DNA of 64,000 nucleotides. Source: Gavia stellata (taxonomy: Eukaryota; Chordata; Aves; Gaviiformes; Gaviidae). The position numbers and the translations under genes were made by a program. Where the stretch lies: NCBI RefSeq assembly GCF_030936135.1, contig NC_082595.1:105193334-105257333 (forward strand). Direction: 5' to 3'. Under the pieces are notes generated by a model. It saw only the letters and a program-made list of their open reading frames with translations. It had not been told where the DNA came from and made no database searches. Position 1 is the first letter of the stretch. Each line of letters starts with the position of its first letter. Shown here piece by piece: positions 36,846-63,501 of the stretch.

Positions 36846-37152
36846 GAAGATGACACATGTGACAACCACTTCCCCAAATCCACCCAGACAGGCAAGCACA
36901 GAGGCATTATTGGCAGGCACAGAAGGGGAAAAGGGCCTTTTTCTACACACCATGGATATTCCACACGACCATGCTTTGTCCCAAATTCCATATACCTAAA
37001 CTAGTGCTTACACCCTTACTTTAGGCAGTGCAAAAACACATGTACTTCTGCAAGCAGAGCATCTGGACGTTTCTGAATAAGAACGGTACAATATTTCAGG
37101 ACTTGACAGAAATGAGGAAATGGAGAAAAAACATGGTGTTTTCAAGGTTTTC

Positions 37153-37158
37153 TTTATT
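37153..37158 (-). terminator. WDCP: WDCP poly(A) signal
   Basis: AATAAA on the - strand (TTTATT on +) 332 bp after the WDCP stop codon. It is the first canonical signal downstream, so the 3' UTR probably ends at about 37.13 kb. Confidence 0.6.
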
Positions 37159-37489
37159 AGGCAACTTTACTGTCATCTAAAAACACCAACATATTAAAGC
37201 CCAAGATGGCAACTTTAGCTCAGGAGCTTGTAAGAATGCCTATTTTCAATCACTGATACAAAGACCTGGTCTATACTGCAAGAGGCATATTTAAAAAACA
37301 CTGCTCAGTATAAAAAAAAGTTAATGGTTCCAAGGATCAAATAAATAATTTACAGTGATATGCAACAAAAAAGCTATGGAAATCTAACAGAGATTTGAGA
37401 CAGACTGTTGTTTAGAATTTGCAGTCCTATACAGTAAATTTAAAAAGTCTCCCATCATAAGACAGGCATTACAAAATCACTGTCAAAAA

Positions 37490-37761
37490 TTACATTTTAC
37501 TGCTGGGCTGTTCTGAAGGACTGCTGCCGTCTAATGTCTTGGAGGAGCAGTCCCTGAGGACTTCCAAAGAACTTGTGATATCCAGACTTTCAGAAGAAGC
37601 GGGTCTACACCCTTCTGTAGAACTGATGATGTCCAAAGTTTTGGAAGAACGGGCGCTGTAGCCTTTCGTACTGGCATCTCTTACGACTATCTCCTGCATG
37701 GATGTAAATGTTAATGGAACAAAGCCCTCGCTGTCCGCTGTGAGAACAATCCAAGATGAAC
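37490..37761 (-). CDS. WDCP: WDCP last coding exon
   Basis: Acceptor 'tatgtgtcttcacag'. It encodes [19 protein letters not shown] and QEIVVRD, then a Ser-rich tail of about 60 residues ending PSSKM-stop. The tail contains three imperfect repeats built on SSKTLD or SSESLD. Confidence 0.92.
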
Positions 37762-40700
37762 CTGTGAAGACACATAAACATCTGTTTATAAGTTTTCCTG
37801 TAATTAGGTATGTTTAAGGTACAAAACATATTTCTTCTAAAATAAAAGTTAAATGCTTCTGTACATTTACAGTTTTTCTAGAAAAAAAAGAAAGTATGGG
37901 GAGATACAGGTTGTATAATCTCAAAAATAAATGACAGTTAACAACGATGCAAAACAGCTTTCTGACCAATTTTGCCACTAGAAGACGAGACTATAATAAA
38001 TGCACGCTTCAAATAAGGAGGAGGAATGAAATTCTGAACAGAATTCATAAGCATCCAGACTTGGTTTTAATTAGGTATTCATAAGCTCCTTCACAGTGCT
38101 TAAGCTGTGCAGATACTGTAAAAAAGCAGGAATTTATTAAATTAAATGACAAATTAGTAGCATAAAAACAATTCAGAAACTGTTTCTATTATGTAATTTC
38201 AATATAATTAATTCAAATAAATACAAGGAAGAAATACTGTACTACACTGTACAAACCCCATGTCTCTGGTCCATTTGCTACTTGACTTTACATCATCATT
38301 AGCATTATTTTTACAATTTGAAATCGTTTACTGAATCCAAAACACTGGCTTCTACCAATTCATATAAACCAGAAAATTTTCGTACTTGTATCCCTTAAGT
38401 TGATGAAGAAATAAAATAGAGCTCATGTGGGGTGAGGGAATTCAGAGAACTATTTCCAGCTGTTTGTAAATTTACATTATGTAACTTCATGTCACAAGTA
38501 AGGTCGTGAGAAGATTATAGCTTCAAAGCACACAACCCTTTAATCTTTTGGCTTAATATCTCATTTGGACCAAACTTTAAAATCAATACAATTCAGGAAT
38601 TTGAAAATACCATTCCCACTTTGCCCATTCATCTAGTAATGTTTGTAAAGTTAACAAAGAAACCTACTGTAACACTGTTTGCTTTTAAAATCTATCTAGT
38701 AAGGCTAGCCATAAGCATGATGATCACTCATTCCTGGGCAACTAATTCTGTTAAGTTTACATTTCTACGATAAAAATGAGAAGTCGAAACTAACGCAGGT
38801 AATGGGGACGTTTTTTGCCAGAAAGAAGAAGTTGTTCAAGTCTTACAGCTCAAAATAAAATTCCAGTCTGAAAAATTAAGAGATCAGTATCTACAAAACT
38901 GCCTACTGTTATCATCGGGTATATCACACGTTTCTGGGTTGTGTCCTAACATTACTAAAATAGTCACTGTGTTTCAATGGAGGTAACTGATCCTGTAATA
39001 GGAAAACTACTAAACTAATGTAAGATAGCAGTAAGAACCTTTTCAAGATTCAATTGCTAGTGAATTACCCGACTACAGTTTTATCTATGTATTGGAATAC
39101 TAAACATATTCTAAGAACTATTTAAAGAAAAACAAAACTTGCATACTGGTAAGAACGGCAGCCTTAAGGCTGGGATAGTTGCTCAGTAATCTACAAGTAG
39201 GCAGACAGCAGACACAGCAGGCAAGTAGCTGTAATATAGTACCAAGAACATATGTAGCAGTGAGAGATCATATCCCAAAGGTGTGTTTTCTGCCTTTGCC
39301 AAAAGTAAGACACTTAGAATTGACACATACACAGGCACACAGGATGTGCACAGGATGAACGGATAACAGCAAAGAAGACCACAGTGTTAAGAAAGGTAGC
39401 TTTCTTCGCAGCAAAAACAGATGCACTGCTAAAATTTATGGAGCTACTTTTGTGTTTATAAAAAACTATAGGATTTCTTAAAGGAGACCAGATGCTGGAA
39501 CTACAGATTAAAATACAGAAAACTGTATTCCAAAACCACCAGTTTCTAAACCTCTAACCTCCTCATTACTCAGACTTCTCTATTTAGAATAGCCGAAAAC
39601 ATAAATAAAACACTGGATGACAGTAATTTTCCTGTGTAAGTAGCTACTTGACAAGGTGGTATCAATACGGAAAAGTTTGATAATTTTTTTCTTTAATGTA
39701 AAGATTCTCCTCAGTAAAAGCCCAGAGAAGAATCTTTATGTTATAAAACAAATGAGCAAACTTTTATTAGTAATCTTTCATTATTTATTCCTTGGGTTTT
39801 TTTCCACATGGGATTATGCATATTGCTACTGCTCACTAAGAATGTCGCATATGTTTGAAGTGTTTGTATTATTGGATAATTACAACATACCATGTTGCAT
39901 TTCTACAAGAGAGAGATTGAACATCTGCTGGACTATATTTAGGCGGAGTTTACCACCACAAAGAATAACAGCTCGTCTTTCATCTGAATCACTTCTGGAA
40001 AGCTGCTTCTGTAAATTCAAGAAAGATTCATTAGATACTGTGATGTATATTTAAGCAGAGATATCAAAATGGCATTCATCAAAACAGGATCACAGACATG
40101 CCTTCAACTACATCATTTACAGAAAGTCAAATGCTACATTCATTCATTCAGACCCATTTGCAAGATTTAAAGTCTCAGCTCTCACAGAGATGATCTGCGA
40201 GTGATAGCAGCAAGTAACTGTGCTAATTCAGCATGTGTCAGAACAGCAGGAGAGGAAATCATACACTGCTGCTGAAGAAGCCATGAGCTTCATCCACAGT
40301 GCAGACCTGACTCTCATCCTACCACCTGTGAGGGACATTTTCCTGGGGAGTCTGTAAAGCTGCAGGTTTTTCATCCTCCGCCCTTCCTGATCCACAACCT
40401 AAGAAGAGGTGAGAGCTGCTGCCCATGAATGTTTGGGACGAGGAACGGACTAACAAATCAGAAGGGCTTGTTTGTCTCACCTCTGACCATCACTGCCCCA
40501 AGCCTTAAAATCCAAAAAGCATCTTCGAAGAATATCCCCCACGGGGCAGAGCAAAACATTTTTAAAATCTGCAAAAGATCAGTTGTTACCAAAAATACAA
40601 ACTCTGTCTTTGCGTAGGATAAAATTCACACAACCATGTCACTTCCCAGGGAAGCCTTGATAACATCTCTGCGTCATGACAAAACCAGGATAAAGTAAAT

Positions 40701-43700
40701 TCTGACTCCTTTTCCATGCTGTGGACAGACCCATCCATCCGCAAGGAGGGCGTACGGTAGAGGGGAGGTTGGAGATGCACATGTGCTCTCGTGCCCCCTG
40801 CACTGATAAACTCTGCCCTCTCAAAGACGCTGGGATATTTGGGGTTTCCTCAACATTTTGTAAAATACCGCTAGTAACTCAGGCAGTAGAGAACAATCAG
40901 GGCTCAGCACACAAGGTGAAGATCCCTGTTCGCCTGTTAACGATTTCTGAATCGAATATACTCTGACTAAAGTTAAAATACAGCATTTTCTGCCAGACTT
41001 ACCAAACTCAGAAGTCAAGCGCTTTTCTAGCCACAAATCATCAGTGATCAAAATATGTAGGTAGAATTGTAGCATTACTTTAATTTGCGAAGCACCCCCA
41101 CAACGTATAGTTAACCAAGCTCTTGGAACACCAAGACAAGCTGATATGTAACTAACTCAGTTTCAAACTGTATGTAAAAAGAGAGCTGAATATAAAAACA
41201 TACCAAAAATCTGTGCTACCTCAAATTAAAGTAGGCTTCTAAACAGACACCTCAGATAAACCAGACACCAGACTTGCTGAGGGAAACTTTCACTTTTCAG
41301 AGTAATGCCCCATATATAATTAAGATTTAAGAGAGCTAGAAATATTAGAGTTATTACAATTACTAAATGTTTACAATGGAAAACAGTGAAGAGAGTGAGA
41401 GAATATGATCCAGGACCTAAGAATTCAATGCTACAAAAGTTGAGAATAATAATGCAGTAATAATGCTGAAAAATAAGAGCTTATTGAAAGGAAAATGGCA
41501 GTTTAAATTACTTTGAATACTGACTGAGATTTATTAATCTGAATTCTAGAAGATACCTAGTAGATTTGTGCCATGTTTTGATAATCAGGTAATTTACACT
41601 TTCTAGTGTGAGATTTGGAAGTCCCTTGTTTCAGCCAAGGGAAGCGTCTTTCACATGAAATTTGATTTTATATCCATTTTTACGCTATGTTAATGGAATT
41701 ATCTACTGCGTCCCTAAGGGTCTCTTTCCTTCTCAGATGGTGCTTTCAGTACTAATTAGCAACATTGCAGTTTCAGAGCCAAAGCATTTTTCTTTTGTTT
41801 CAGTCTCCATTATTTTAGTTGTCCTCACAGGAGGACAGGAGATTGATACCAATTCCCATACATAGAAATTTTCACTCGTCTAAATTTCTACACAGAAAGC
41901 TTCAGAAGTTGCCTAGGAAAAACATTACCTTCCTAGAACTTCATACAAGTCTTTAATTCTGCAACTGAACTGTCACGCGTGGGTTCTCTGGAGTCCCGCC
42001 AGCCTCTGTGCAGAAGGAGAAGGTACGCCTGCCAGGGTCAGAGCCAACGCGCTCAGCCCAGCGCAAGGCAGGGACAGGGAGCTGCACGTTCCCAAATACT
42101 ACATTGCTTTAAAAACACTGAAAGACTGCAGAGTAATGGGACTTGTAACATTAGTCCCACCTACAGGAACAGGATGGAAATCCAATCCTATTGACCATTA
42201 CGTGATAATGGCCTTTTTTTTCCAGAAATGCTCTCGTTTTACCACTGGTATAGATAGCTGTGCAAGAATGAAAGCACTACTACAGCATCCTCCTGAAATG
42301 ACAATAATTCTAGTCTTAAAATGCGTTACTTTAAGTTTAGTTTAAAAAATTATCTGAAATATTTCCCTTATTTTATGTCCCATCAGAGAAAAATACAAAT
42401 ATGTAGTTTTAAAAGAACTGTAAATAGGGACTGAGATGCAATTACAGGAAGGGTAGGGATGAAGGACAACAAAAACAAGCCAGGATTATGTAAAAGCCTA
42501 AGTAAGTCTAAATAAGACTACTATCGGATTCACCTGCATGCAGTGAGATCATTCATATGTATCGAATTTGCACATACTAAATGTTCGCAGGATGTTATCC
42601 TTCCTCTGCATAATCTGACAAGAGTTCGTGTTTTAAATCCGTACAAAGAACGAACATCCATAAACAGATTTTATCATTAAGGCTTCCAATATTAAAATTA
42701 CCTGGCAGGTGACGTTAATAAAAGAGGGTTCCTGAGAAGATGGGTACACTGCAAAATTTCTCTTCCCAGATTTTAGCAGCTCAGTTAATTCACAGAGATG
42801 ATGCTGTAATTCTGTGAAATTACCAGACAGTTTTTCTACGTTTTTTGAAAAGTAATTTGCCTCCTTTTCACTTAATAGGTTATTCTTGTAAGAATTTGGT
42901 ATTTTGGAAGCTGCATCCACCTGCCTTTTTGGAGATGTTGGCTTGTTAGAAAACGCCAGCGATGTGGCAGACAGTGCCACAGTCCGATTAACTGGTTCGG
43001 CATCGAGAGACTCAACAGCTGGAGGAAAATTCATGGAAATCTTTTTATCTTTGAGGTCACTCATGTTCAACAACAAGTTTTGTTCATAAACAGGACTCTT
43101 AATTTCTTCAATAAGTTTCCTTCTGCTGGTAGGAGACCGAAGGGCAGCACGATCTGGTATCAAGAGTCCACGGCTGAGAGGGTGAACATCTGTAGAGAGA
43201 TCATCAGGTATGTTTGAAAGGTTCAAACTGGAGCTCCCATTAACCGATGCAGATGTGGAAGGACCCATTTCAAATATTAGTTCCTTAATCATCAATCGGA
43301 TCATGTATTTGTCTGATCTTGAAGAGGGAAGAAATGCAGGGTCAGTGAATTTTTGTCTTCCAACCAGTATCAGTAACAATTTATTGGTCAAGAAGCACAA
43401 ACCCTTTGGTTTCTCATTTTTCTCTAGCTGAATTTGTTGAATATTGGGTAAATTGGAAGAAGTCAGTGAATAGACTAAAATAACGTTGCAAGTATTGGAG
43501 GCAACCGATACAGTTTGAGTTTTGGGGTCAAAAGCCATTATATCAGGAACCAGAATGCCTGGGATGCTAACTTTTTTGGTAGAGGTAACCCTTCTTTCAA
43601 AAGTCACCAAGATGAGATGTGAAGAATCTTGGCCACTTCCCGTTAGGTAGTCCTTGGGCCTCAGATGAAGAAGAGGACTGGAATCAGCACCCTGCTTGCT

Positions 43701-44564
43701 AGAAAGTATGTGAGTTAGATCCACAGGAGATGTAACAACAGGCAAGGGCTTCTCAGAGTCCAGTGACTTTTTCCCCCCATCCATGGAATACTCTTCCTCA
43801 CCACATAAGCTGGACTGCGAGGGGAAGGACTCTGTTTCAATGCTCGCTGGAACTTCAAATGCAACACCAGCATTTAAGCCACAGATCTTGTCTAGAGGAA
43901 GCTCAGTGGCAACAGCAACCTGGAAATTCAGAGTAGCTTCCACAGCGCAGATGTAGCCTCCCACATCAAAGACTGGGCAAAAAGAACAAGCATTCAGTGT
44001 TTTCTGAGCATCATCCCAAATATAAGAATGAAGGGCACTGCCTACTCCCACTACTAAGCGATTGCCTTCCTTCGTCCAACAAGCGCAATGGATGAGACCA
44101 CTGCCTTTAATATCTGCTTTAATTCTGGAGTTGTTGAGATGAACAGAGTGTAAGACAGAGGCATCCCGCGTAGTTAGCACAGCCAAGATCTCCTTCTTCG
44201 GATGCCACACGCAGCCTTGGGGGAGCACTGGAAACGGCTCGCTGATGTCGCATATCTGAGAAACTAAGAGCTTATTTCTTTCTGTTACATTAAAACAGAG
44301 CTGCCAAATGGTGATGTGCTTTTTGTGTTGAACAGCAAGCAGAGCTGGGGCATCAGGGGGACAGGGGCCCCAATAGAGTCCATGGACATGTTCAAACTGA
44401 CCAACAACACTTGAGTCACCAAATTTTGGTTCTCCATTATGAAGTTGTAAAGAAGTTAGTATCACCTGTTTCCCATCTGTCCAGGCAATACCATGCACAG
44501 GGTGAATTGCTTGGTGTAAGGCATTAAGGCCAGTTCTCAGCAGCTTTGCCTTTCCTAGCTCCAT
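37490..44564 (-). CDS. WDCP: WDCP, WD repeat and coiled-coil containing protein (complete coding sequence)
   Basis: Three coding exons on the - strand (44564-42702, 40008-39891, 37761-37490) join with consistent phases to 750 codons plus stop. The start [20 protein letters not shown] and the N-terminal WD-type beta-propeller region ([63 protein letters not shown]) identify WDCP (human C2orf44). A predicted coiled coil lies at about residues 568-600 ([20 protein letters not shown] onward), and the conserved QEIVVRD block is in the last exon. The human protein is about 720 aa and is reported to bind the kinase HCK and to occur as an ALK fusion partner; its normal role is poorly known. The gene is convergent with MFSD2B and probably transcribed from the CpG island at 47 kb. 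The C-terminal 60 residues form an unusual internal repeat. Confidence 0.93.
37762..39890 (-). other. WDCP intron
   Basis: AT-rich intron with no recognised gene or transposon. Confidence 0.7.
39891..40008 (-). CDS. WDCP: WDCP middle coding exon
   Basis: Acceptor 'cttgaatttacag', donor 'gtatgt'. 118 bp: [20 protein letters not shown] then [19 protein letters not shown] plus one base. The [13 protein letters not shown] block is conserved in WDCP and reappears in the second copy at 63.4 kb. Confidence 0.9.
40009..42701 (-). other. WDCP intron
   Basis: AT-rich intron. A GC-richer patch at 41970-42090 shows no coding or repeat identity that I can recognise. Confidence 0.65.
42702..44564 (-). 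CDS. WDCP: WDCP main coding exon
   Basis: 1863 bp, 621 codons in phase 0. The start is the MELGKAK methionine at 44564-44562, which matches the family start. The acceptor of this exon is at 44584-44585 (ttctaatttgtttag), leaving 19 bp of 5' UTR. The donor GTAATT follows CAG at 42702; the frame remains open for 22 intronic codons beyond it, which are not part of the protein. Confidence 0.93.
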
Positions 44565-44583
44565 GATTTTTAAAGTGAGACAT
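44524..44583 (-). promoter_or_regulatory. Upstream open reading frame overlapping the WDCP start
   Basis: The first three bases of the main WDCP exon are ATG, 19 bp before the WDCP start and out of frame with it. This frame reads [23 protein letters not shown] and runs past the WDCP ATG. If the acceptor is used as predicted, every spliced mRNA carries this overlapping uORF, which could lower WDCP translation. Confidence 0.45.
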
Positions 44584-44585
44584 CT

Positions 44586-47384
44586 AAACAAATTAGAATG
44601 AAAAGAAAAAAAAATTATTGTACAGGACAGAGGACAATATCTGTACGATTATTTAGCTTATGACCCTGCCAATGCTGGACTCTTCCTTCCAGTGAAGCCA
44701 ATATATGCATAATGTTCATCTATGCTTAATCCCCAACCCTAGAATTTTTTGTTCATGATGTTCCCACAGTGAAATGCAATTTTAAGAGAATGAAACTTTG
44801 CTGTTTACATAGGCTTAGTCTGCTGCATTTTCATCACAAGACCAGTCCTTTCATTCTAATCGACAGGTTGCTGCTTCTCAGAACACTTTCAAAGTACTTC
44901 AGTATTAAAAATTTTCAAAAAAATCGCCTCTCATTCTCAGCTTCATGGACCATTTGTGATTAGATAAAGTAATCCCTTGCAAGTATAACCAAGCATTAGT
45001 GTATTATCTACAAATCTGATCCTGTATTAAGTGGGTGAGAATGAGGCATTTGTATGGTTATTCCAGAAAGCTCTCTAAAAAAGCAAATGCAATTTTGAAG
45101 AAAGTTAGGATCAAAGCAGATTTTCTGAGGAAATGAATGAGAAAATAATTTAGAAGAACTTAGAACACAAGAGGGGGACAGACCCATCTACCTCAGGCAC
45201 CAGCCGTACTATGATTGCGTATGAATGACTCACAAATTTTCAACATCCTCTAATGCAGTGATTTTTATTTATTTTTTTTCTTTTCCTAAAAGTGATTCAG
45301 CACCTTTTTTGTCAAAGTTTGCAAACCACCTTGTAGATCACTACTATTTGTTGGGTAGAAGGAGAAGCCTTTTCAGTTCTCTCTACATAACAGCTTCAAG
45401 AAGGAGAATGGGAAACTGCTAGCCATCATTATTCTCTGTAATCTGTAACCAGGTGTCTGGGACATCCAGAAGCCATATGCAAGGCACCAAAATTTCAGAA
45501 GGGTTCAGGATTTTACAAGTTTCTAGTTTTTGAGCTGTGACAATCCCTACTCTGTGCACAGACGCCAATTCAAATGGATTGATGGTTTCCTCACTTAAGA
45601 TTCTCTGTAGGATTTGGCTCAGCTGCAAAGCCATGGCACAGAATGAGTTGCAGCGTCAGTAGGAAACATGAAAAACAAGAAGAAAGTGTTTGAGAAAGTC
45701 AAACTGGAAGGGTTTATCACAATGTGCAGGGCCTGGCACTACTCAGTATTTTAATTAACTATTTGTGGATGACCTCAAAACTGGACTGGAAGAGCAGATT
45801 TCGGAGACTAAAGTCAGATAGAAAAAGTTATGTTATAATGATCAAGACAACTTATTCTCAAACCAATAACAAGTGCAAAATAATATACTTAGCAAAGAAA
45901 AAAAAAAACAACATGGATATCTCTTCAGAAATAATTCCCTGGGTAGCAGATAGCAAAAAAGGATCTGGCTTACAGTGGGTCACAAATTGAGTATTTCAGT
46001 AAAGTCAGAATGTTGCCAAATAAGACTATCATTCTGGAATGTTTTGAAGAGGGATGCCGTACACTAGGGAGATAATTACCCCACTTCCTCAGAGCTAACA
46101 GTATCTCCACTGGAGTACTGCGCCTAGTTCTGAATTTAACAGTCCAAGGATGATGGAAATGCTTAACAACAGAGCTCAGGGACTGTAGAAACATGAGAAG
46201 TGAGTTCATTTAGTTTGGAGAAGATTGTGAGTAGAAACTTGCAAACACCCACCAGTCTGCTGACAAGAGAACACTGATCCATTGTTCTCCAGGTCTACTC
46301 TGGATAGTACAAGATAATAATCAGCTTAGTTTCAACAAAGGAGATTTAGGTCAGCTATTAAGGAAAAATTCTAACTATAAATGATAGCTAAGCATTGAAG
46401 CAGGTTACCTTGGGGAAGGGGAGAAGGCATCCCATGAATTTCATAATCTGTAAGAGCCAATTAAGTAAATGCCTGTCAGGGATAAGTTTAAGTACACTGG
46501 ATCCTGCCTCATGGTAAGAAAGCACTCAAGATACTTCCCAATAAACTTCTCCACCATCTACCTGGCTCTCCTCTAAACTCCAGTATAACCAAACTCAATC
46601 TTGTTAAGCAACCGCCACTTGCAGGAAAATCAAAATGTTCTTTGTTCCTTCTTTAGTACTCTGAATCACACGTACACTGCTGGGCAATACTTACTAATGG
46701 AAGGGAGATGATAACGTGCCCCGTAAGATATGCTAAGATACTATGCTTCCTGGGCCATCTGGAGAGTTCCCTGCGATACGAGAGACGGTTTACGCCCTCC
46801 CCAGCGGACCTGGAAAAGCCAAGGCAGCCAGACACCCACTGGCCGCTGCACCCCAGCCGCCTCGTGCCCAAACCCCACCACTCGGCCCACCACCGCTTCC
46901 AGCTGCCTAGGCCACGGCGCTCGGGGCGTCAAGGCGTGCCGCCGCCGCCGCGGCTCCGCCAACCGCCTCCTCACCGGCGGACAGCCCCGCTGCAGCCGCC
47001 CCGGGCCTCGCCTCACGCCCTCGCACCCTCCCCGGCCCAGCGAAGGCCGAGCTCCCCTGGGGCAGGTGTCACGCCACTGCCACAGCCCTGCGGGCAGGCC
47101 GGGATGCTCGGTGAAACACGGCGCCTGTCCCCAGCGCCTCTGGGCAGCCGGCGGGGCGCCGAGGAGACGCTGCGGGGGATCCTCCGGCAGCCGCCGCCGC
47201 GGCGGGGCAGCCGGCGGCCACGGCAGGGGGCGAGACAGAGCGCCCAAACCCGCCCGCCCGCGCCGCCACCCCCGGCACCAGCGACCCGCCGCTCCCTGCG
47301 CGGGCCCGCCCGCACCGATATTCCCCATCTCCCCCAGCCGCCCGCCCGCTCCTTCTCCTCCCAGCCACGGCCAGCAGCCTCACC
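44586..47384 (-). other. Probable first intron of WDCP
   Basis: The main coding exon has a good acceptor just upstream of the start codon, so a non-coding 5' exon is expected in the CpG island. A - strand donor (GCGG then GTGAGG, with GT at 47384-47383) is a plausible end of that exon. The interval contains an old CR1 copy. Confidence 0.45.
45690..46520 (+). mobile_element. Ancient, highly diverged CR1-type LINE fragment
   Basis: Degraded but collinear with a CR1 3' half on the + strand. It has an 'ggagtactgcgcctagttct' block (46111-46130), 'agtttggagaagattgtgag' (46213-46232), an 'aggaaaaattctaactata' block and 'gaagcaggttaccttggggaag' (46397-46418). It finishes with 'taaatgcctgtcagggataa' (46465-46484). 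No frame survives. Confidence 0.65.
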
Positions 47385-47649
47385 CGCCCGGCGGCTCAGC
47401 CGAGCTACGGTGACACGGTCCCCGCGGCCGCGCAGCGGAGCGCAGCGCTTGGCTGTGGCGAGCACACCCCGGCCACGGCCCGGCCCGGCCCGGCCCCGCC
47501 TCCCCGCTCGGCCCTGCCCAGCCCCGCACCGCCCGGCCGCAGGGGGCGGGCAGCAGCCCTCCGCCTCGACGCTCAGCAGCGGCGCTCTAGCCGGGGACGC
47601 CTGAGCTCTATGACCCAGCAGGTGGGGCCTACAAGGGGCGGGCGCTAGA

Positions 47650-47668
47650 ACTACAGTTCCCAGGAGGC
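47650..47668 (+). promoter_or_regulatory. ZNF143/THAP11-type promoter element
   Basis: ACTACAGTTCCCAGGAGGC closely resembles the known consensus ACTACAATTCCCAGCATGC (SBS element) bound by ZNF143 and THAP11, found in many housekeeping and bidirectional promoters. Three or four positions differ. Confidence 0.6.
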
Positions 47669-47689
47669 AACGGGGCGGGGCGGTGACTG

Positions 47690-47699
47690 GCACTTCCGT
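47690..47699 (+). promoter_or_regulatory. ETS (GABP-type) site
   Basis: The sequence GCACTTCCGT contains the ACTTCCG core bound by ETS factors. It lies 22 bp after the ZNF143-like element, a common arrangement in TATA-less CpG promoters. Confidence 0.5.
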
Positions 47700-47871
47700 G
47701 CGTGCGCGCGCCCCGCTCCGCCCCGCCCTCCCCCCCCGCCCCGATCCCGCGGGTGGCGCGAGCGGTCTCCTCAGGGCGCCCCAACGGCCGCCGCGGCTGA
47801 GGGGACTGCGGGCGAGGTGACAGGGACTTGTCCGCTCCGTCGCTCCCGGGGGGGGTCACGTACCGAGCGAC

Positions 47872-47919
47872 ATGTCCGACCCACTCCCCCCTGGCGTGGC
47901 CGCATCCGTGTGGCGCTCG
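47872..47919 (+). CDS. Candidate first coding exon of an unidentified + strand gene
   Basis: ATG in a fair context (G at -3) at the + edge of the CpG island opens MSDPLPPGVAASVWRS and is followed at once by a consensus donor (GGTGAGG, GT at 47920-47921), phase 0. It lies downstream of the ZNF143/ETS elements, as a + strand first exon would. I do not recognise the peptide. It is not the start known for FKBP1B, the gene that shares the WDCP promoter in human. Confidence 0.35.
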
Positions 47920-48292
47920 GTGAGGCCTGGGAAGGGACCAAAGGAGAGAGGCGGCCCCTCAGGCGGGAGGACGTTGAGTCCCCAGTGTGGAGTGTCCCGT
48001 CGCGTGAGGGGAGCCTGGTGATCCAGCCGTCAGCAGTGTGACAGGCCTGGCCTTGCTAGCAAGGGGCAGTTCCCCCGCCCTGGGGCCGGAGGCTGTAAGA
48101 TAGACACCTCCTACGGCCCGGCAGGTAGGATGCTGGTCTGAACGCGAAGACTGCAAGTTTCAGGAGTTACTTGCATCCTTCTCAGCAACATAAGGATGCA
48201 AAATTAAATACGTGCCTGGTTTTCTTTGTGTTTGTTTTTTTTTTTTTCCTTGGGAGGGCACATTTAAGTGAACAAAGCATATAAATATACAG

Positions 48293-48373
48293 AACTACTC
48301 CAATACAATTTCTTTGGTCCTGGTTTATCGTATCGGGCATAATTTCTTACAAGTCTCTGAGGCCTTTTTGAAG
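48293..48373 (+). CDS. Candidate second exon of the unidentified + strand gene
   Basis: Bounded by AG ('ataaatatacag') and GTAATT, open in phase 0-0 for 27 codons (starts NYSNTISLVLVYRIGHNF, ends SEAFLK), and so joinable to the ATG exon at 47872. The pyrimidine tract of the acceptor is weak. No family is recognised, and it may be a chance open frame. Confidence 0.2.
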
Positions 48374-48689
48374 GTAATTATATTGCAAGACTGTGTCACT
48401 TTGTCACTACTTAGTACTGCAGAACAGTCTGATCATCGTACAGTTTTTGAAACCCATTCTTTTCATAGGATGTTGAAACACTGGAAAAGGTGCCTTAAAG
48501 AGCTGCCAAAGATGTGAAAAAAATGCTTGAAATGGTTGCAAGGTCAAATACACAAGTAGCTCAAACTTACCGAAGGAAGAACACTAGGTGGTGACTTGGC
48601 TATATTGCATGAGTGCCTTTACAGAAAAAAAAAAAAAAAATCAGAACTAAAGAGTTCTTTAAGTTAGTAAAGGAAGGTTTAACAAGAGC

Positions 48690-48920
48690 CTTGGATGAAT
48701 TCAAATACGTAAGACACAGGCGTGAGTTTGATTGATCACTGGAACAAACTACTGACAGACCAGATCCTCTATGTGTATCTTCAAGTGAAAACTTGGTGAC
48801 TTTTAGGGACATGTAATCTAAATGCAGATTTTGCCTCAGTCAGAGACAAATTTCTGAGCTCAATAAATGGATTTTAGATTAAATTCAATGGCCTGTGATG
48901 CACTATGGGTGAGGATATCT
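48690..48920 (+). mobile_element. Ancient CR1 3'-end fragment
   Basis: 'gatcactggaacaaactact' (48735-48754) and 'aaattcaatggcctgtgatg' (48880-48899) are blocks of the old CR1 3' end, in sense orientation and heavily diverged. The limits are approximate. Confidence 0.5.
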
Positions 48921-51900: not shown

Positions 51901-52066
51901 ACCACGCCTCATCTCCTAAAGCAGCTACCACTCCACGTCTCCAGAAGCCTGCCTCAGCACGTTGGACTTCAGCAGGTCCAACGCTTTGCTGGTTGTTTTA
52001 GAGACAAAGGAGACACAGGCTGTTGTCTAAATTCGTTTTCAAACAGCTGATTGTTCTCTACACTAG
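48921..52066. other. Putative intronic DNA, no confident gene
   Basis: AT-rich sequence with scattered open frames. Splice-bounded candidates on the + strand include 49270-49287 (six codons, phase 0-0, strong sites) and a stretch ending at about 49832 that contains EDCICLNTQHCITSAIDIEG. None is supported well enough to call an exon. Confidence 0.5.
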
Positions 52067-52154
52067 GAAGAAGGCATAGGCAATGTAGAAGACTTGTACA
52101 GGAATGTTTTGTCACCCCCTGCAGTTGTTCACGCTGTGACGGCCTACCTTTTCT
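52067..52154 (+). CDS. Candidate exon of the unidentified + strand gene
   Basis: Acceptor 'ttgttctctacactag' and donor 'gtatgt' flank 29 open codons (EEGIGNVEDLYRNVLSPPAV then VHAVTAYLF) plus one base. The composition looks protein-like, but I do not recognise a family and could not join it in phase to firm neighbours. Confidence 0.2.
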
Positions 52155-52254
52155 GTATGTAAAAACCTACACCAGTGCTTTTTCTATGCCTGAAACAGGC
52201 CTTCAACTAAATTCTGCTAACTCTGCTGCAGTTTAAGAGATACTGAATGGTAGC

Positions 52255-52480
52255 ATAGGGCAGAGTAACAAGAGGTCCAGGGTGGATATCTATGAGAGAA
52301 ACTGAAGGAGCAGAAAAGAAGACTAAAGGGAGACATAATGGACATAACAGTTTTCAAGTATTTAACAGACAGCTGCAAAAGACAAAGGACATAAACTGAA
52401 TAGTCAAAATATCTGCTTTGGGGCAGGAAAATGGACCTTCCAGTCCACTAGCATAAAGCTTTATGTCAAACTAATGTACT
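52255..52480 (+). mobile_element. Ancient CR1-type fragment
   Basis: 'gaagactaaagggagacata' (52318-52337) with 'acagttttcaagtatttaac' (52347-52366) corresponds to the 'gagactaaggggagacataa...' stretch of old CR1 3' ends, + orientation. Limits are approximate. Confidence 0.5.
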
Positions 52481-54919
52481 TGCACTGCTGTGAAAGTGCT
52501 AAGAAGTAAAAATCAGTCTCCTGACTAGTCACACAGTTTGTTGTGTACCATAAATAACATGCAAAACCAAAATAACTTCATGTGTATTAAAAATGAGATA
52601 GCCTTTTGAGAGTCTTTCTGTTTTCAAATTCATTTGGGTAAAACAATGATGTTGTAAATAAGGATTTTTGATATGACAATGTTTCTTTGGAATAATCTTT
52701 CCAAGGACATTTTCAGGCATACCTCTTCAGAACAAATAATACCTTCTTTTAAATTACACATCCTTGTACCTGTGGTTAGTCCAGAACCAAGCTAATATAC
52801 AAATCACCAGATCACATCACATATTTAACAATATCATGTGAGAGAGATTGTTCAAATCTTAGTCTTTCTAGTAGGCACCTGGAGTTCCCTTTTACTTGTG
52901 CCACCGTATATAGACACCTTTTCTCCTTCTTCTCTGTAAATCTTTCTGTGGCAGTAAACAATTTGGTCCTAGATACTCCTATCTCCTACTGTTGCATTTT
53001 GTATTTTCCTTTCATGTAATTAATCTGCACAAGCACTACTTTCATCTTTGCTACTTCTTAGGTTTATCCTGCATTTCAGGTACACTGTTATCATGCAGTT
53101 TTCTTTTATGCTTTTAACAGGTACAAGTGTTTTGAGATAACTCTGTATCAGTGATGATCAGTGTAGCTACATTTTGTGTTGATAACAATATCCTTGATAT
53201 CTAAATAAAATGTTAATAAGGAAAGGTAGACATGGAAACGGAGATGACAGCTGTATACAAGTTGCATGAGCATAAGAATATTTACAAACTGAGCGTGAAA
53301 TCGTGACTTGTTTGAAGTTCAAGGGAAATTTTGACAGTAATTTGCAGTGGAGCCAGTATTTTGACTTATACTTTTTTTTACTTACTTGACTTATTTTTAG
53401 GTGAACTAAGTTCCTGAGGGAAGGATAACAAGGGAAACAATTAGCATCATACTTACAAATCAAATTGTGACTAGTTTGTTAATTGTTGGTTATGCTATCT
53501 GTGGCAGGTAAGATGTAAAGAAATGCAATCAGCCTTATTGTAAAATACACTGAAGTGTTAAACTTAAAAAGAAATTTATTGATAATTACAGAGACACAGA
53601 ATTCTCTGACAGATAAAAGGTATGAGATATGATAGCAATGGGCATGTTACTAATTCATTGGTGTGACTTAAGAATCATGATGCCTTCTCCACTGTGCTGG
53701 CACAACCGTGCAGCTGAGCTGTAGGTTGAATTGAGAAACTGGTCCACTTTAAAAGTGTTTTGGTAGGTCTTTTTAGCCATATAAATTCTTGGGTCCATAC
53801 ATTTCCATCCAGTGACTGCAGGATGAATGAACAGGGGTTCAATGGAGAATGAGAAGGCCTTTCACCAGTATTGCTTTGGAAAACTTCACCTCAGCATCCC
53901 ACAGCTAAATTTCAATAGGACACCAGAGCTCTTCTTACATGGCAAAAGTTTGGGTTTTGATTGCTGAAGTTAGTACATTATTGTGAATTTTGTACTAATT
54001 TTTAAAATAATGTTCGTGGACTGTTTCTTTGTTTACTGCCTTTTATATTTTTGAAATGTATTAAGTATGTTTGATTTGAAGGAAATGACTGTTGCCTCTA
54101 AACTGAACTAATGGTTTGCATTTGTCTGGAATTTTGGTTCATTTTTGTCTGTCGTATTACACTGTGGTGTTCAGATGTACTGCTCTGCTGGCTGCGTACT
54201 CCCTTGTCTGTTAAGATATCATGGTGCCTGCTGACAAGTGGGGTGGATCCTTGCCAAAGGACAGAGGTTGTCGAGTACTAATGGTTTTCACTGGCAAGTC
54301 TATGTAACACTGCAAATGTCATCTCCTGTGCAGGAAGTCTTTCTGTGCCAGTACTGAACTTTAGCACCACATGCCTCTAAACATTTGATCACACCTGGCT
54401 GTTCACACATATGTGTCAAATAATAGTGGAGGAAACGGGAGCATAAAGTTCAAGGACGGTATTGGCTCGCTGCGAGCAGAGGCTGAATTGCACTCAGCGC
54501 TTTGGAAACTCATATGAGAGGTACCCAAATGTCATTAGCTGGGAGATAATGGCAGTCCTCTACTTGTCTATTAGATAATAGCACCAGCAGGGAAGTACTG
54601 AATCTCAGCAAAGTGAGTTTGCATTTAACATAAAGATTGTGGAATTGCCTCAGTCCGTTAGAAAAATGAAGCCATAATATTGACTGATTAACATATACAT
54701 AAACATATAAAATGACTATTAACATATAAAACAGTAATGCATAAAGTTAATTTCTGTTGTGTGGGACAACAGAAAATAAAGTCATACTTTCAGGTGTGAA
54801 ATTGCATAACCTCTGGGATTTACCTCACCTGACTTCACATGCTTAAAAGTTAGGTCAGATGAGTTCAGGTCTAAAGGACTGAACTGTTTCATAATTGCAG
54901 TCTGTTGCTGTATGTTGTT
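52481..54919. other. Putative intronic DNA, nothing recognised
   Basis: AT-rich, with no exon, RNA gene or transposon that I can support. Confidence 0.5.
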
Positions 54920-55060
54920 TTTTTAAGAAAAAGTTAGATAAACATCTGTCAGGAGTTACTTAAGAATAATTGGCACTGCCTTGGGTTAGAGAGAAGGACT
55001 CTTCAGCTACATATTGGATGGGGAGAATGGTCCAATGCTTGTCGCTTTCTGTTAAGATAG
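54920..55060 (+). mobile_element. Ancient CR1 3'-end fragment
   Basis: 'gttagataaacatctgtcag' (54933-54952) followed by a degraded 'cactgccttgggttagagag' (54974-54993) matches the conserved end part of old CR1 elements. Short and diverged. Confidence 0.4.
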
Positions 55061-55339
55061 GAAAACCTGGAAATAAAAATGGCTAAAAATATGTTCATTG
55101 TCTAAGCTGACAAAACAGAAAAAAATGAGAATCAGGGGAAAGGAAGTTAGGCTTGGTGATACTATTTATACTATTTCAGTGGTTACAAATATATTAAAGG
55201 GAATTGATACTTCAGATTTTTCACATGAGTATAGATAATACTATTCTGGAGTACTAGAGGAGAAAAGAGAAGAACTAGTTGAGGGTTATGCAGAGCCTAA
55301 TTTATACACTGCCTGCAGTGATCTTTCACTTTTTAACAG

Positions 55340-56051
55340 TTATGAAGAATATCAAAGTAATATTTCATTGTGCAAAGTCGGCATCATAGATTGGCCAGCA
55401 GCATTTCAGCTGACGTTGATTTTGTTGCATTTAATTTTTATATTGTTTTATTATTGTTCTCACAAAATTGTTTTCAAAATCAAAAAAGAAAAAGCCTTTC
55501 TGGCATATAGAACTGCTGCTGTTAGCATTTTCTCAAGAAGTGGGTCAATACAAGAAACCATGAAGAGTGAAGCAGACTGCTGCATTCTTAGCAACAGAGT
55601 TACGGAAAATGTAAGGTAAGTTTTAACTTTACTTTGAAGCAGATTGTACTTTTAAGTAAGGATATACCAACTCCTAAAATTATACTAGAATACATATAAA
55701 TGTGCGGGATAAAGATGCAGAGTAATTAAAATGGAAATTTAGGCTTTCTGGTATGTTGTTTATTCCCCACAGGGGAAGTGTTTTGGGTGAGCTGGTACAC
55801 CATTTAGTCTTCTGAGCACCACTGGTATGGCATACTGAGTGTAGTCATTCTGCTTTGACTTCTAATTTAAACTCCTAGTCTTCCTAGCTTTCCTCTGTTT
55901 TAATTACAGAAGACAGACTCCCCTACAGGGTGACTCTGGACAGGGACCTCGCACCAGTAGTCTCATTATTCTTCCAGAGGAGCCTGTCCTTTCTGCTGGT
56001 GAAATAAGGAGCCTAAAAGAGGGGGTTAGTGGTTTCATGAAATTCAAGTGA
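55340..56051 (+). CDS. 3' end of an unrecognised membrane-protein gene (two exons)
   Basis: Two exons, 55340-55615 and 55910-56051, read through the junction in one frame to TGA at 56049-56051. Acceptors 'gatctttcactttttaacag' and 'cctctgttttaattacag' are strong, and donor AAG-GTAAGT is consensus. The joined C-terminal 138 residues have a short N-terminal part with one N-glycosylation sequon (NIS), a hydrophobic segment (FQLTLILLHLIFILFYYC), a basic stop-transfer (HKIVFKIKKEK), then a Ser/Thr- and Glu-rich tail ending SLKEGVSGFMKFK. This would suit a single-span or last-helix membrane protein. No family is recognised. Upstream exons are not established; the CpG island at 47.9 kb is the likely source. 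Chance open frames remain possible. Confidence 0.4.
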
Positions 56052-57133
56052 TCTGAACAACTCCCCTTTTTCTAAACCGATCAATTTTGGCCCTATAAAA
56101 TAGCACTTCTGGAGGATGGTGAATGCTTCTCGATCTATGCTTTTCTCCTTTTCACAGCCTACTGTCTACTCAGCTCATTTAGTACAAATTCTTTCTATCT
56201 TTCTACATGCCCTTATCACTGTTTGTGCAAAAATCTTCAGTACAGCTTGTGCTTAATAGAACAGTCATCTTGTATCTCTCTACTTCACTGATTCTCCATC
56301 TGTTCTCCATCCAAACCGAAGCTGAAAATTTATCCTCTGCTTTGCATAAATCTCTTCAGCACTTCTTCCAGTGCTTTTATTACTTTAAATTTTAACTCTA
56401 CAGCCTTGTGGTAGACACTATATAAGATAGTTCTGCACTGCACTGCACTCCTAAATCATTACCTGAAAACAAATATTTCTTCATTCAATTGTTTTCCATT
56501 ATTAAGTGCATGTATATGATTTAAGCACTTATTTTCAAATATGTGTACATAATAGTGTGTTCATAAAGGGGGGGGGGGGCAGTGCTATTCCTTAACATTA
56601 TACAATTTTAATTGATATATAGTATATTTTTCCTAAGCCTTCCTATAAAATTGTAAGCATCCAACAAGATGAACTGGGGTCCGCATTTGTTACCAGACTA
56701 ATTGTGCTGGGTGATGGTAGCAGCTTCAGGCAGATTAGTTCCTACTTAGTTTCAATAACCCTTGAATCGTACAGCAGGGGAAAACAATGTCACCGAAGTA
56801 TAACAAATCCAAAAGTTCATTAAGCATCACAGAACTAAGTTTTTGACTTTTACAGCCAGTTATTCCCTGAAACTAATTGTTTTGTCATCTAAAAGTTTAT
56901 TTGCCTCTTTTTATCTCCACCAAACCAAACTTTGATAGCTGTTCGAAGAAGCTCCTTTCACTTCTGATCTTCTCAACGTTCAGATTGTTTTGTAGAAGAG
57001 TAATACATGAAAAATTAAAATGGTAGCGTGACAGACTGACAATGAAATGTCTAGTTAAAATTATAAGTTCTGAGGCATCTTTGATGCCTAGATACTCGCT
57101 GATCTCTGCTAGTTAAGATTTTCACCTTCTCAG
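56052..57133. other. No gene recognised; contains a G12 tract
   Basis: AT-rich DNA with a run of 12 G at 56568-56579, unusual in this setting. An ATTAAA near 57014 could serve as a poly(A) signal for the transcript ending at 56051. Confidence 0.5.
56568..56579. repeat. G12 homopolymer tract
   Basis: Twelve consecutive G on the + strand inside AT-rich sequence. Such a run is prone to length variation and to sequencing error. Confidence 0.9.
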
Positions 57134-58119
57134 AATTCCCCTTTTGGCTGTTGCAACAGCACTAAGGCATGAAGATGACAAAAGGTGGAACGTGAGTATT
57201 CTCTAGCAACAAGGAAGTCCATATGAATAACTTATATAATGAACTCAAAGAAACGATACGGTACAAACAAAAGTGTCTTGGTGTGTTATCAACCTTATAG
57301 GTTCAATCCCATTTTTCCTCAAGTTCATAAATTTAGAGTGCAGGACTGTTCCATGTAACGTATTTTTTGTGTTTCATTAGCCTCATTTCAAGTGGACGAA
57401 ACTATAGGACTACCACTTATAGAAGATAATATTTGTGAGAAAAAATGTCTTTTAGTTCTTCCTTTAGTTGAGCCTAAGTAGTCCTCTAAAATATATCCTC
57501 CCATCATTCTAGGTAGTTATAATTAAGTTTTATTTTACTTGTCCATAGCATAAGTATTGTAAATACCAGATACTGTTGTGAGACACAAGGATGTTGTTCA
57601 AGTGTATTTGCAAGATTAGAAATATCTGCTGCTTCAAAATATGCTATGTCATTTAGAAATCTGATAGTGTCTTCTGTGTTACTTATTTGATTTCAATGAT
57701 TTGGGCTGATTTCAGTGAAGGAAAGCACAGCTTAAGCCAAATTTTTAAAGCAGTTGTAATACAAATAGCTTTTTGAACACAATTTTAATGCAGGCAATCC
57801 AATTAACCAAATAACTAAAGTAATAGATGTGTTTAATAGTTAAAAGGTCAGATTTATTTTGTTTTGTTTTTTTTTACAAACAGGAATGCTCCTCGAGGCT
57901 GCTTAAAAAGATCTTTGCAAACAAGGTAGTACAAATATACGCAGCTACATTGCATACCTGTGGTTGTAGGCGATTTGGAATGATGATTCCTTTGTCTCTG
58001 GGAGGATACTTGCATGAGAAGGACATTATTTAATTCAATGAATTGAAACTGTTTCCTTATTTCAGGAATTGAAACTGTTCCTCATGAGATTTGTGGCTGC
58101 ATCACTGGAATGGTACTAA
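57134..58119 (+). CDS. Candidate exon chain, alternative 3' end of the unidentified gene
   Basis: Three splice-bounded open pieces in compatible phases: 57134-57191 (IPLLAVATALRHEDDKRWN, donor gtgagt), 57884-57925 (ECSSRLLKKIFANK, acceptor with a long T tract, donor gtagta) and 58066-58119 (ELKLFLMRFVAASLEWY then TAA). The first begins one base into a codon, so it could follow the exon ending at 55615 in place of the one at 55910. The pieces are short and unrecognised, and the evidence is only splice sites plus phase. Confidence 0.27.
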
Positions 58120-59497
58120 TGCCAAACTTCCAAACCCATTAAGTGCCTTAAGACCATAGATCTACCTTCTCGATCCAGCTTTGGTATGGGGTGAAGTATT
58201 GTAACTGAATTTTAGCGTATCTGTGCCCTATAAACAGGCTTGCCGTGGCTCCCAGGCAGGGAAAAAAGACTTTCCAGGAGTATTAACAAGACCCAAAACA
58301 CACAGTATGAAAAATAAGTCTTAATAGTAGCTTAAATAAGTCTCATCCCTTTTATGTTTACACGAATGTACAGGGTGAAGCAGGCATGCCTTTCCATGGT
58401 TCCTGCTGGGGCCTGTCCAGCAGTACAAAATGCTAGGCCTCACAGATGTGGCTACTCATTACACTTTACCCATCTCTTTGCATTTAAAGGAAGAAAAGTT
58501 AGAGAGTTCTTCCCTTATGCCTGTTTCTGTCACGATAATCATGGTAGTTTAATTTTCATGAATCTCTGCCTGCTTCTCATATGTATCTGTATTGCCTCTT
58601 GTCTTTGAGGGTGAGGTTCATCTGACTAAATGTAAATGTTTGTACTTAAACTAGTCACCCTAGCTTGCTTTTGCAGTCAGTGGAAAGGAATAGGCACTTA
58701 TTTACTTGCTTAGAAGGATGGTTCACCTCAATCAGTTTTAGAAATCTATGTTAGGGCATGAGTAATCTGCTGTAGAAGTGCTTTTCTTTTTTTGACTGAT
58801 AATACAGGAGTCTAGATGACAACTTCAGTGTAGACACCTGCATTTAGCCAAATGAAATTTACGTTCAATGTCTTTGATCCTTAATTTACCTTGCAAGGCT
58901 TTTTCTTTTTCTTCCATGTGCATGTGTAAGTCTACATGCCATGTAAGACACTGACAGGAGACAGTGATGCAGCCTTTTAAGTAATTGAACATTTTCATAT
59001 AAAATCTCTGAAAACGTTGCAGGTTTCCATGGGATCCAACTGGAAAAGCAAAGAGAGCCTGAAGCAGGTTTTTTTTTTTCCAGTTTTCCTTAATGAATAT
59101 AAATGCTCTTTAGTTGTATTTTCTTCAGCTTTTTTGTGGACTGTACACATGTATTAGCTAGATTTGTTGTTACTGCATGATTTTTAGCATAATATTTTTT
59201 CTCCAAGAACATCCTGACCACAATTAAAGTAGAGGTTAGTCTCTCTGCTCCAGTCCACTGGCAGCCATTAATAACAACAGGTGTGGTAAACTTCACTCTA
59301 GGTCTCATCCTTCAGAAGAAATCATGAGGGTCCAGCCAACCCTAGGATTTAGCTATAGAGTAACCATGCCACAGATTTTTCAGTTAAAATACATTGAAAG
59401 TAGTGAAGACAGCTTTCTAGTCACTCAGTTTCTGACACTGCAGAGTGTCTCTGTATTGTGTTAAAAAAGAAGGTCATTAGCATTCTTTGTTCAGAAA
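58120..59497. other. Tail-to-tail spacer before the WDCP-like gene
   Basis: AT-rich sequence that should contain the 3' UTR of the WDCP-like gene (- strand) and perhaps that of the + strand candidate. No canonical AATAAA is obvious within 500 bp of the WDCP-like stop on the - strand. Confidence 0.5.
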
Positions 59498-59664
59498 TTA
59501 TGTCACTCTGCTTGGTGGTCGCATTGGAATGCTTTTTTTGTAGGAGTGACCTCCACAGACTTCTGAACTGTCAGTTCCATCCCTTATGATTATCTCTTGT
59601 GTTGCTTTGAATATTAATGGCACAAAGCCGTCCTTGTCTGCAGTGAGTACAATCCAAGAAGAGC
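59498..59664 (-). CDS. WDCP-like last exon
   Basis: Acceptor 'cttaatttttgtag'. It encodes [31 protein letters not shown] and a tail ending [12 protein letters not shown] (TAA at 59500-59498). Confidence 0.86.
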
Positions 59665-62600: not shown

Positions 62601-63501
62601 TCAGCCGGTCAGGGGCTAAAACAAGGGGGAAGACAGAGAGTAATTTATGGATTTCTCAGTGTGGAAACCATGCAAGGAGATCATAATTACAGACAACTAT
62701 TGTGTAGCATAAGATCATAATATACTTAGACTGTGATGAGAAAAGCCATCAGAAGCATTATAGAGAAATGGCTAAAAAATAACTGTACGTTGCTGAGAAG
62801 CTGGCATACATGAACAGGCAGGGATGAGATAATTCAGAGACCAGACTGGGGCTAGGATTTCCCTAGCTGCTTCTGTCCGTACAAGTTAATCAGTGGTGGG
62901 TGGTAGAAATGTGAGACTGGCAAATTAGAACATTGAGCTTCATTGTTTATCTTACATTAAAATAATCCCAAATGCTATGTGATACATACATATCATATTC
63001 TGAGAATGAATTTTTCTCCAATGTACTCTCTATTGTCAGGTCTGGGACATGCTTGTAAAGGTGGGCAAAGCAAAATGCCAAAAGGTCTCAAGGAAGCATT
63101 TCTGTTTGCAGGTAACACAGCATACTGATTATTTTCTCAGCCTTCCTCTGTAGAGGCATCTAACATATTACTCTGGTAATAGGTAGTCCTGCAGTTACTT
63201 AGCATTCAAGTGATTTCAAGAGACACTCTGCCATGTTTCAGACAAAGGAAGACACATACTTATCAAAAAAAGTTAGCTATCTCAGTTTACTACAGTATGG
63301 GGTAATTATTATACCACAAATGCCTCTTTTACGCTAAAAATCTCAGGCGAAACCAGATACCAGAAATAAAAAGAACATACCATGTTTCATTTCAATAACA
63401 GGCAGATCAAACAGCTGCTGGACTAAATTCAAATGGATCTTGCCATCACAGAGGAGAACATCTTTTGTTTCTTCAGTAACTGCTCCATTTGAAAAACTTT
63501 T
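59498..63501 (-). CDS. Second WDCP-like gene, last two coding exons (5' part outside the window)
   Basis: Exons 63501-63381 (121 bp) and 59664-59498 (167 bp) on the - strand reproduce the structure of the last two WDCP exons at 40.0 and 37.7 kb, with the same phases (0, then 1). Residues align: [20 protein letters not shown] against [20 protein letters not shown], and [20 protein letters not shown] against [20 protein letters not shown]. By hand I count 15 of 27 identities in the first block and 21 of 31 in the second. Acceptors and donors are intact and no stop interrupts the frame, so it appears to be a working paralogue and not a retrocopy. Its tail after QEIIIRD is shorter (about 25 residues) and lacks the repeats of the first copy. 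The main exon should lie right of base 64000. Confidence 0.85.
59665..63380 (-). other. Intron of the WDCP-like gene
   Basis: 3.7 kb of AT-rich intron. Open frames at 60337-60723 and 62085-62447 (+ strand) have no family likeness or clear splice context. Confidence 0.65.
63381..63501 (-). CDS. WDCP-like penultimate exon
   Basis: Acceptor 'gcatgcatttgaag' (weak pyrimidine tract), donor 'gtatgt'. 40 codons plus one base: [20 protein letters not shown] then [20 protein letters not shown]. The donor hexamer and the CATG at the exon end are identical to those of the WDCP exon at 39891. Confidence 0.83.

What the first reader, a model, noticed from the sequence alone, without database searches (positions are those of the whole stretch)
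37490..63501. Tandem duplication of WDCP: two diverged, apparently intact copies on the same strand
The last two exons of WDCP (40008-39891 and 37761-37490) have clear homologues at 63501-63381 and 59664-59498, with the same order, strand and intron phases and intact splice sites. Hand counts give about 56% and 68% identity over the comparable blocks, so the duplication is old and the second copy has stayed in frame. WDCP is a single gene in human. A retained second copy with a different C-terminal tail would be a lineage-specific paralogue of a poorly understood gene.
Basis: partly seen in the sequence, partly recalled or inferred. Interest (0 to 1): 0.78.

Follow-up and report, generated by a model that had tools for sequence, protein, structure and literature searches.

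The report
Old tandem WDCP gene pair
This animal, most likely a bird, carries two old, full-length, apparently intact copies of the little-studied gene WDCP side by side, where human has one; it is a real lineage-specific gene pair, but ordinary gene duplication.

Summary
The missing main exon of copy 2 lies 8.3-10.2 kb beyond the window (74194-72275, continued coordinates): 640 open codons, 64% identical to copy 1's main exon, in phase with window exons 63501-63381 and 59664-59498. The products are 750 and 735 aa, identical at 445 of 710 aligned residues; pairwise dN 0.25, dS 1.43, ratio 0.17, so purifying selection. A Pfam WDCP scan of the genome gave 6 exon matches, 3 per copy, and no third gene. 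Gene order is MFSD2B-like(+), WDCP-1(-), WDCP-2(-), FKBP1B(+), SF3B6(-), as in mammals with WDCP doubled. Copy 2, not copy 1, faces FKBP1B, scores higher against the family and kept segments copy 1 lost, so copy 1 looks the more altered in structure. Expression, other species and function could not be tested.

The parts
42702..44564 (-). WDCP-1 main coding exon (ATG at 44564, donor after 42702), 621 codons: WD-repeat part, linker, coiled coil (domain names from the family name)
   Evidence: open frame; Pfam WDCP 988 bits
39891..40008 (-). WDCP-1 second coding exon (118 nt)
   Evidence: in phase, AG/GT borders; Pfam match covering this exon (the match runs on into intron and there crosses 4 stops)
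37490..37761 (-). WDCP-1 last coding exon with stop; conserved C-terminal module followed by a long Ser-rich tail with three ~17-residue repeats
   Evidence: repeats read by eye, not scored by TRF
46651..48150 (.). CpG island 5' of WDCP-1 (GC 0.73, CpG o/e 0.83), probable promoter
   Evidence: promoter role inferred
63381..63501 (-). WDCP-2 second coding exon (121 nt). Its main coding exon lies outside the window, at 74194-72275 in continued coordinates (genome G000:C2:105265608-105267527, - strand, 640 codons, intact); the CpG island with FKBP1B exon 1 lies at 87551-89350
   Evidence: in phase, AG/GT borders; tblastn E 7e-8; Pfam match; main exon; island
59498..59664 (-). WDCP-2 last coding exon with stop; short tail
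   Evidence: tblastn E 9e-9
11476..11871 (+). frame holding an MFSD2-like exon (MFSD2B by position), left neighbour of the pair
   Evidence: weak: phmmer to MFSD2A 7mjs, E 1.8e-4 over 29 residues; no Pfam match at E <= 0.1

Best explanation
An ancestral WDCP gene between MFSD2B and FKBP1B was duplicated in tandem, most likely in the sauropsid line after its split from mammals and long before modern birds. Both copies have been kept as full protein-coding genes under purifying selection. Each makes a WD-repeat protein with a linker, a coiled coil and a conserved C-terminal module. The likeliest way they work is as WDCP does: a propeller-plus-coiled-coil scaffold or client tied to the RUVBL1/2-R2TP chaperone network. 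The pair probably persists by division of labour, through different linkers, tails and promoters. Shown here: gene structure, intactness, pairwise constraint, order, copy number. Inferred: timing, promoter use, function.
For: Genome search: a second main exon, 65% identical over query residues 26-654 of 671, its one flagged stop upstream of the ATG. Full models of 750 and 735 aa, 445 of 710 aligned residues identical. NG86 dN 0.249, dS 1.434, ratio 0.174; of 12 windows of 60 columns, 2 have saturated dS and the other 10 range from 0.06 to 0.43. Simulated neutral drift at 0.25, 0.45 or 0.72 substitutions per site left 0 of 1000 copies stop-free from either gene; at 0.1, 1 and 0 of 1000. Of the non-coding DNA nothing aligns between the loci beyond about 15 bases at exon edges. 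6 Pfam WDCP exon matches in the genome, all here, from 6 candidates scored; 0 of 14 control genomes, whose names were not shown. RUVBL1/2 and RPAP3 association of WDCP/C2ORF44: passages of PMC5974087 and PMC13153604.
Against: No transcript data. The copy-2 exon-2 acceptor looks weak. A pairwise dN/dS does not separate the two lineages. The structure prediction failed (mean pLDDT 27). No other sauropsid genome was available; scans of viral and prokaryote contigs, each with two short peptide patterns, found no relative. The stretches between the named genes were not searched for other genes: 66 and 93 open frames of 50 codons or more at 48150-59490 and 74260-87550 were listed, not identified.
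Confidence: 0.9

Rival explanations
1. The pair is older than the amniote split; mammals kept one copy and lost the other, so the human gene is the orthologue of only one of the two.
For: dS is near saturation, and 4-fold sites give 181-453 My for assumed neutral rates of 2.5-1.0e-9; a twofold faster mammal lineage moves the protein-based date to about 303 My.
Confidence: 0.12
2. Copy 2 is intact but no longer expressed, or is on its way to becoming a pseudogene.
For: No transcript evidence; weak-looking exon-2 acceptor; the nearest CpG island upstream of its main exon begins 13 kb away and already holds FKBP1B exon 1.
Against: No stop or frameshift in 735 codons; low pairwise dN/dS; the same number of copy-specific changes in both (61 and 60); higher family score than copy 1.
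Confidence: 0.06
3. Misassembly or retained haplotypes of one locus.
For: None found; the window and the 90 kb read to its right hold no N.
Against: 62.7% protein identity and no alignable non-coding DNA.
Confidence: 0.01

Closest known systems
Human WDCP (C2orf44), Pfam PF15390
   Different: Two genes instead of one; copy 1 has a long Ser-rich tail and small deletions; copy 2 has a short tail and lacks a PxxPx[RK] motif that copy 1 and the recalled human protein have in the linker, at places that do not align exactly
Old retained tandem duplicates in general
   Same: Same strand, near each other, both coding, constrained, equal rates
   Different: Nothing mechanistically new; this particular pair did not appear in the paper listings seen

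Membership tests
WDCP family (PF15390) | match to the family model over the curated cut-off along its length | tested here: met
   full proteins 1108 and 1167 bits over positions 1-694, cut-off 25.3; each of the 6 exons over the cut-off on its own
WDCP family (PF15390) | one large coding exon followed by two small ones, in the same phases in both copies | tested here: met
   that human WDCP has the same exon layout is recalled, not tested
WDCP family (PF15390) | place between MFSD2B and FKBP1B-SF3B6 | tested here: met
   FKBP1B and SF3B6 clear, MFSD2B weak; mammal order from PMC12075139
WDCP family (PF15390) | beta-propeller plus coiled-coil fold | tested here: inconclusive
   AlphaFold2 on two sequences gave mean pLDDT 27; Pfam propeller matches below their cut-offs
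WDCP family (PF15390) | binding to RUVBL1/2, RPAP3, HCK | not testable with these tools
   RUVBL/RPAP3 from passages of PMC5974087 and PMC13153604; HCK recalled only
Tandem duplicate pair | both copies intact and under purifying selection | tested here: met
   (pairwise ratio; not split by lineage)
Tandem duplicate pair | both copies expressed | not testable with these tools
   no RNA data

The most novel reading that the evidence does not exclude
A duplication as old as archosaurs or all sauropsids left birds and reptiles with two WDCP genes that share out the jobs of the single mammalian protein: copy 1 kept the SH3-ligand (kinase-facing) side and gained a phosphorylatable Ser-rich tail, and copy 2 kept the ancestral scaffold role and the FKBP1B-linked promoter. 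Comparing the two would separate the functions of a poorly understood ALK-fusion partner.
Probability: 0.2. Interest if true: 0.45.

Novelty: new member of a known kind. Interest (0 to 1): 0.33.

Why it matters
In the passages seen, human WDCP appears as an ALK fusion partner and a RUVBL1/2-associated protein. A second copy kept under constraint for perhaps 200 My gives a natural comparison of which parts are indispensable (N-terminal part, C-terminal module) and which can be divided. It also warns that bird 'WDCP' annotations may mix two genes.

Tried and rejected
Structure prediction of the copy-2 main exon with copy 1 as its alignment gave a useless model (mean pLDDT 27, pTM 0.18), so no fold search was run. 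PDB sequence search with the copy-2 main exon: 3 ferritin chains at E about 0.4, taken as chance. Searches for other WDCP sequences in viral and prokaryote contigs, two short peptide patterns each: 48 and 53 pattern matches, none a relative. Rfam: no match in the window at the gathering threshold. The peptide of a possible alternative last exon of copy 1 (38116-38048) has no match in copy-2 intron 2 among those printed, E up to 29, list cut short. Gene conversion was considered because windows 1-60 and 301-360 have lower dS (0.70 and 0.58); the windows are too short to tell. Misassembly rejected by divergence. Papers: the listings for WDCP and C2orf44 (30 of 45 and 30 of 41 shown; titles and abstract starts) and narrower searches (0, 2, 2, 1 and 1 papers) show no description of a bird or reptile duplicate; passages were seen of PMC5974087, PMC13153604, PMC12075139, PMC8078820 and PMC4695188 only. 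PMC8078820 lists the WDCP family among repeat families modelled without a known structure. Annotation databases of birds could not be searched, so automatic annotation may already hold both genes. The paper that characterised WDCP (Yokoyama and Miller) is not held (its citation was seen), and HCK binding is recalled only.

Full report
Check of the observation. Copy 1: 40008-39891 and 37761-37490; copy 2: 63501-63381 and 59664-59498, all on the - strand, with AG and GT borders, the same phases and a terminal stop. The copy-1 main exon (44564-42702) gives 988 bits with Pfam WDCP, and the last exons of both copies match the same model. Within 124 kb, tblastn with WDCP-1 finds the two copy-2 exons at E 7e-8 and 9e-9, so chance is excluded.

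Reading past the window. The genome is held: the window is G000:C2:105193334-105257333, in 1.32 Gb and 1185 contigs. A search with the copy-1 main exon finds itself and one more place, 65% identical over query residues 26-654. The one stop codon flagged there precedes the ATG. The exon runs from 74194 to 72275 in continued window coordinates, is open for 640 codons and ends in a GT donor. Joined to the two window exons it gives 735 residues in one frame; copy 1 gives 750. A Pfam WDCP scan of the genome gives 6 matches from 6 scored candidates: three exons for each copy and nothing elsewhere; the match over copy-1 exon 2 runs on into intron and crosses 4 stops there. The same scan rang in 0 of 14 control genomes, whose names were not shown.

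Divergence and constraint. The proteins are identical at 445 of 710 aligned positions. NG86 gives dN 0.249, dS 1.434 and a ratio of 0.174; by exon the ratio is 0.15, 0.31 and 0.43. The first four windows of 60 columns, the N-terminal part, are 68-92% identical, with ratios of 0.06-0.08 in the three where dS is not saturated; of the eight later windows one is saturated and seven have ratios of 0.10-0.43. This is a pairwise value and does not split the two lineages. In simulated drift without selection at 0.25, 0.45 or 0.72 substitutions per site, 0 of 1000 copies stayed free of stops in each of six settings; at 0.1, 1 of 1000 (from copy 1) and 0 of 1000 (from copy 2) did. In a nucleotide alignment of the main exons the gaps are 3, 3, 13, 2, 27, 6 and 3 bases, 57 in all; those of 13 and 2 sum to 15. 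Between the loci (37000-50000 against 58000-91000) blastn aligns five segments, all in the main exon, exon 2 or exon 3, overrunning exon edges by at most about 15 bases.

Place. The order is an MFSD2-like exon (+, 11476-11871; weak match to MFSD2A structures; no Pfam match), WDCP-1 (-), WDCP-2 (-), FKBP1B (+, tblastn matches starting at 88441, 92421, 137342 and 140088) and SF3B6 (-, 150086-146820; a further weak match to its first residues at 150442). A cattle gene list gives the same neighbours with WDCP once (PMC12075139, passage). Other genes between these were not searched for; open frames of 50 codons or more at 48150-59490 (66) and 74260-87550 (93) were listed only. Three CpG islands were found in 124 kb: 46651-48150, 5' of WDCP-1; 87551-89350, the next upstream of WDCP-2, which holds FKBP1B exon 1; and 100551-100850. 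So WDCP-2 is the copy that faces FKBP1B. That WDCP-2 starts in that island is inferred.

Timing and polarity (lead only). It scores 1176 bits over the whole Pfam model, against 1108 for copy 1 and 1167 for copy 2, so it is a genuine-looking family member, but its letters were not checked against a record. Both copies are 52.6% identical to it and 62.8% to each other; 135 sites unite the copies, 60 unite copy 1 with human and 61 unite copy 2 with human. Copy-specific changes are therefore equal (binomial P 1.0). Branch lengths are 0.270, 0.265 and 0.577. With an amniote split of 319 My (recalled) and mammal/bird rate ratios of 0.75-2, the duplication dates to 177-303 My; 4-fold sites (194 codons) with assumed neutral rates of 2.5-1.0e-9 give 181-453 My. 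Both are older than crown birds (about 100 My, recalled). A three-sequence set cannot be rooted without a clock, and faster change after duplication would make the protein date too old.

Which copy is the conservative one. Copy 1 alone lacks 7 segments (22 residues, 5 of them in the poorly aligned tail) that copy 2 and human share; copy 2 alone lacks 1 (25 residues, in that tail); 2 segments each are found in copy 1 alone (15 residues) and copy 2 alone (3), and human alone lacks 8 (36). Copy 2 has the higher family score. Copy 1, in turn, has a PxxPx[RK] motif in the linker as human does, though not at exactly aligned places, which copy 2 lacks. Phylogenetically both are co-orthologues of human WDCP if the timing is right.

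How it works. From passages seen: C2ORF44 is counted among RUVBL1/2 partners recovered with the RPAP3 C-terminal domain (PMC5974087; PMC13153604), and is an ALK fusion partner (PMC4695188). I recall but could not read that it binds HCK. The most likely function of both copies is the same kind of scaffold or chaperone-linked role, with specialisation in the linker, tail and expression. This step is inferred. The structure prediction did not help.

Verdict. It is a new member of a known kind, probably widespread in birds and perhaps already in automatic annotations. I saw no description in the paper listings, which cover only openly licensed PubMed Central texts and of which I saw titles, abstract starts and a few passages.

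Noticed in passing
window 38116-38048 (-): In copy-1 intron 2 an AG-bounded 23-codon frame ([23 protein letters not shown], then stop) is in phase with exon 2 and would be an alternative last exon; no match in copy-2 intron 2 among those printed.
   Followed up: partly
window 37648-37493 (-): The copy-1 tail holds three diverged ~17-residue Ser-rich repeats ([10 protein letters not shown].., [10 protein letters not shown].., [10 protein letters not shown]..), seen by eye; the tandem repeat finder does not score them at DNA level.
   Followed up: partly
window 23056-22340 (-): 238-codon frame that looks like the end of a CR1 LINE reverse transcriptase (name recalled, not searched).
   Followed up: no
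continued coordinates 92471 to 137342 (outside the window): FKBP1B has a gap of about 45 kb between the matches to its second and third coding exons.
   Followed up: no
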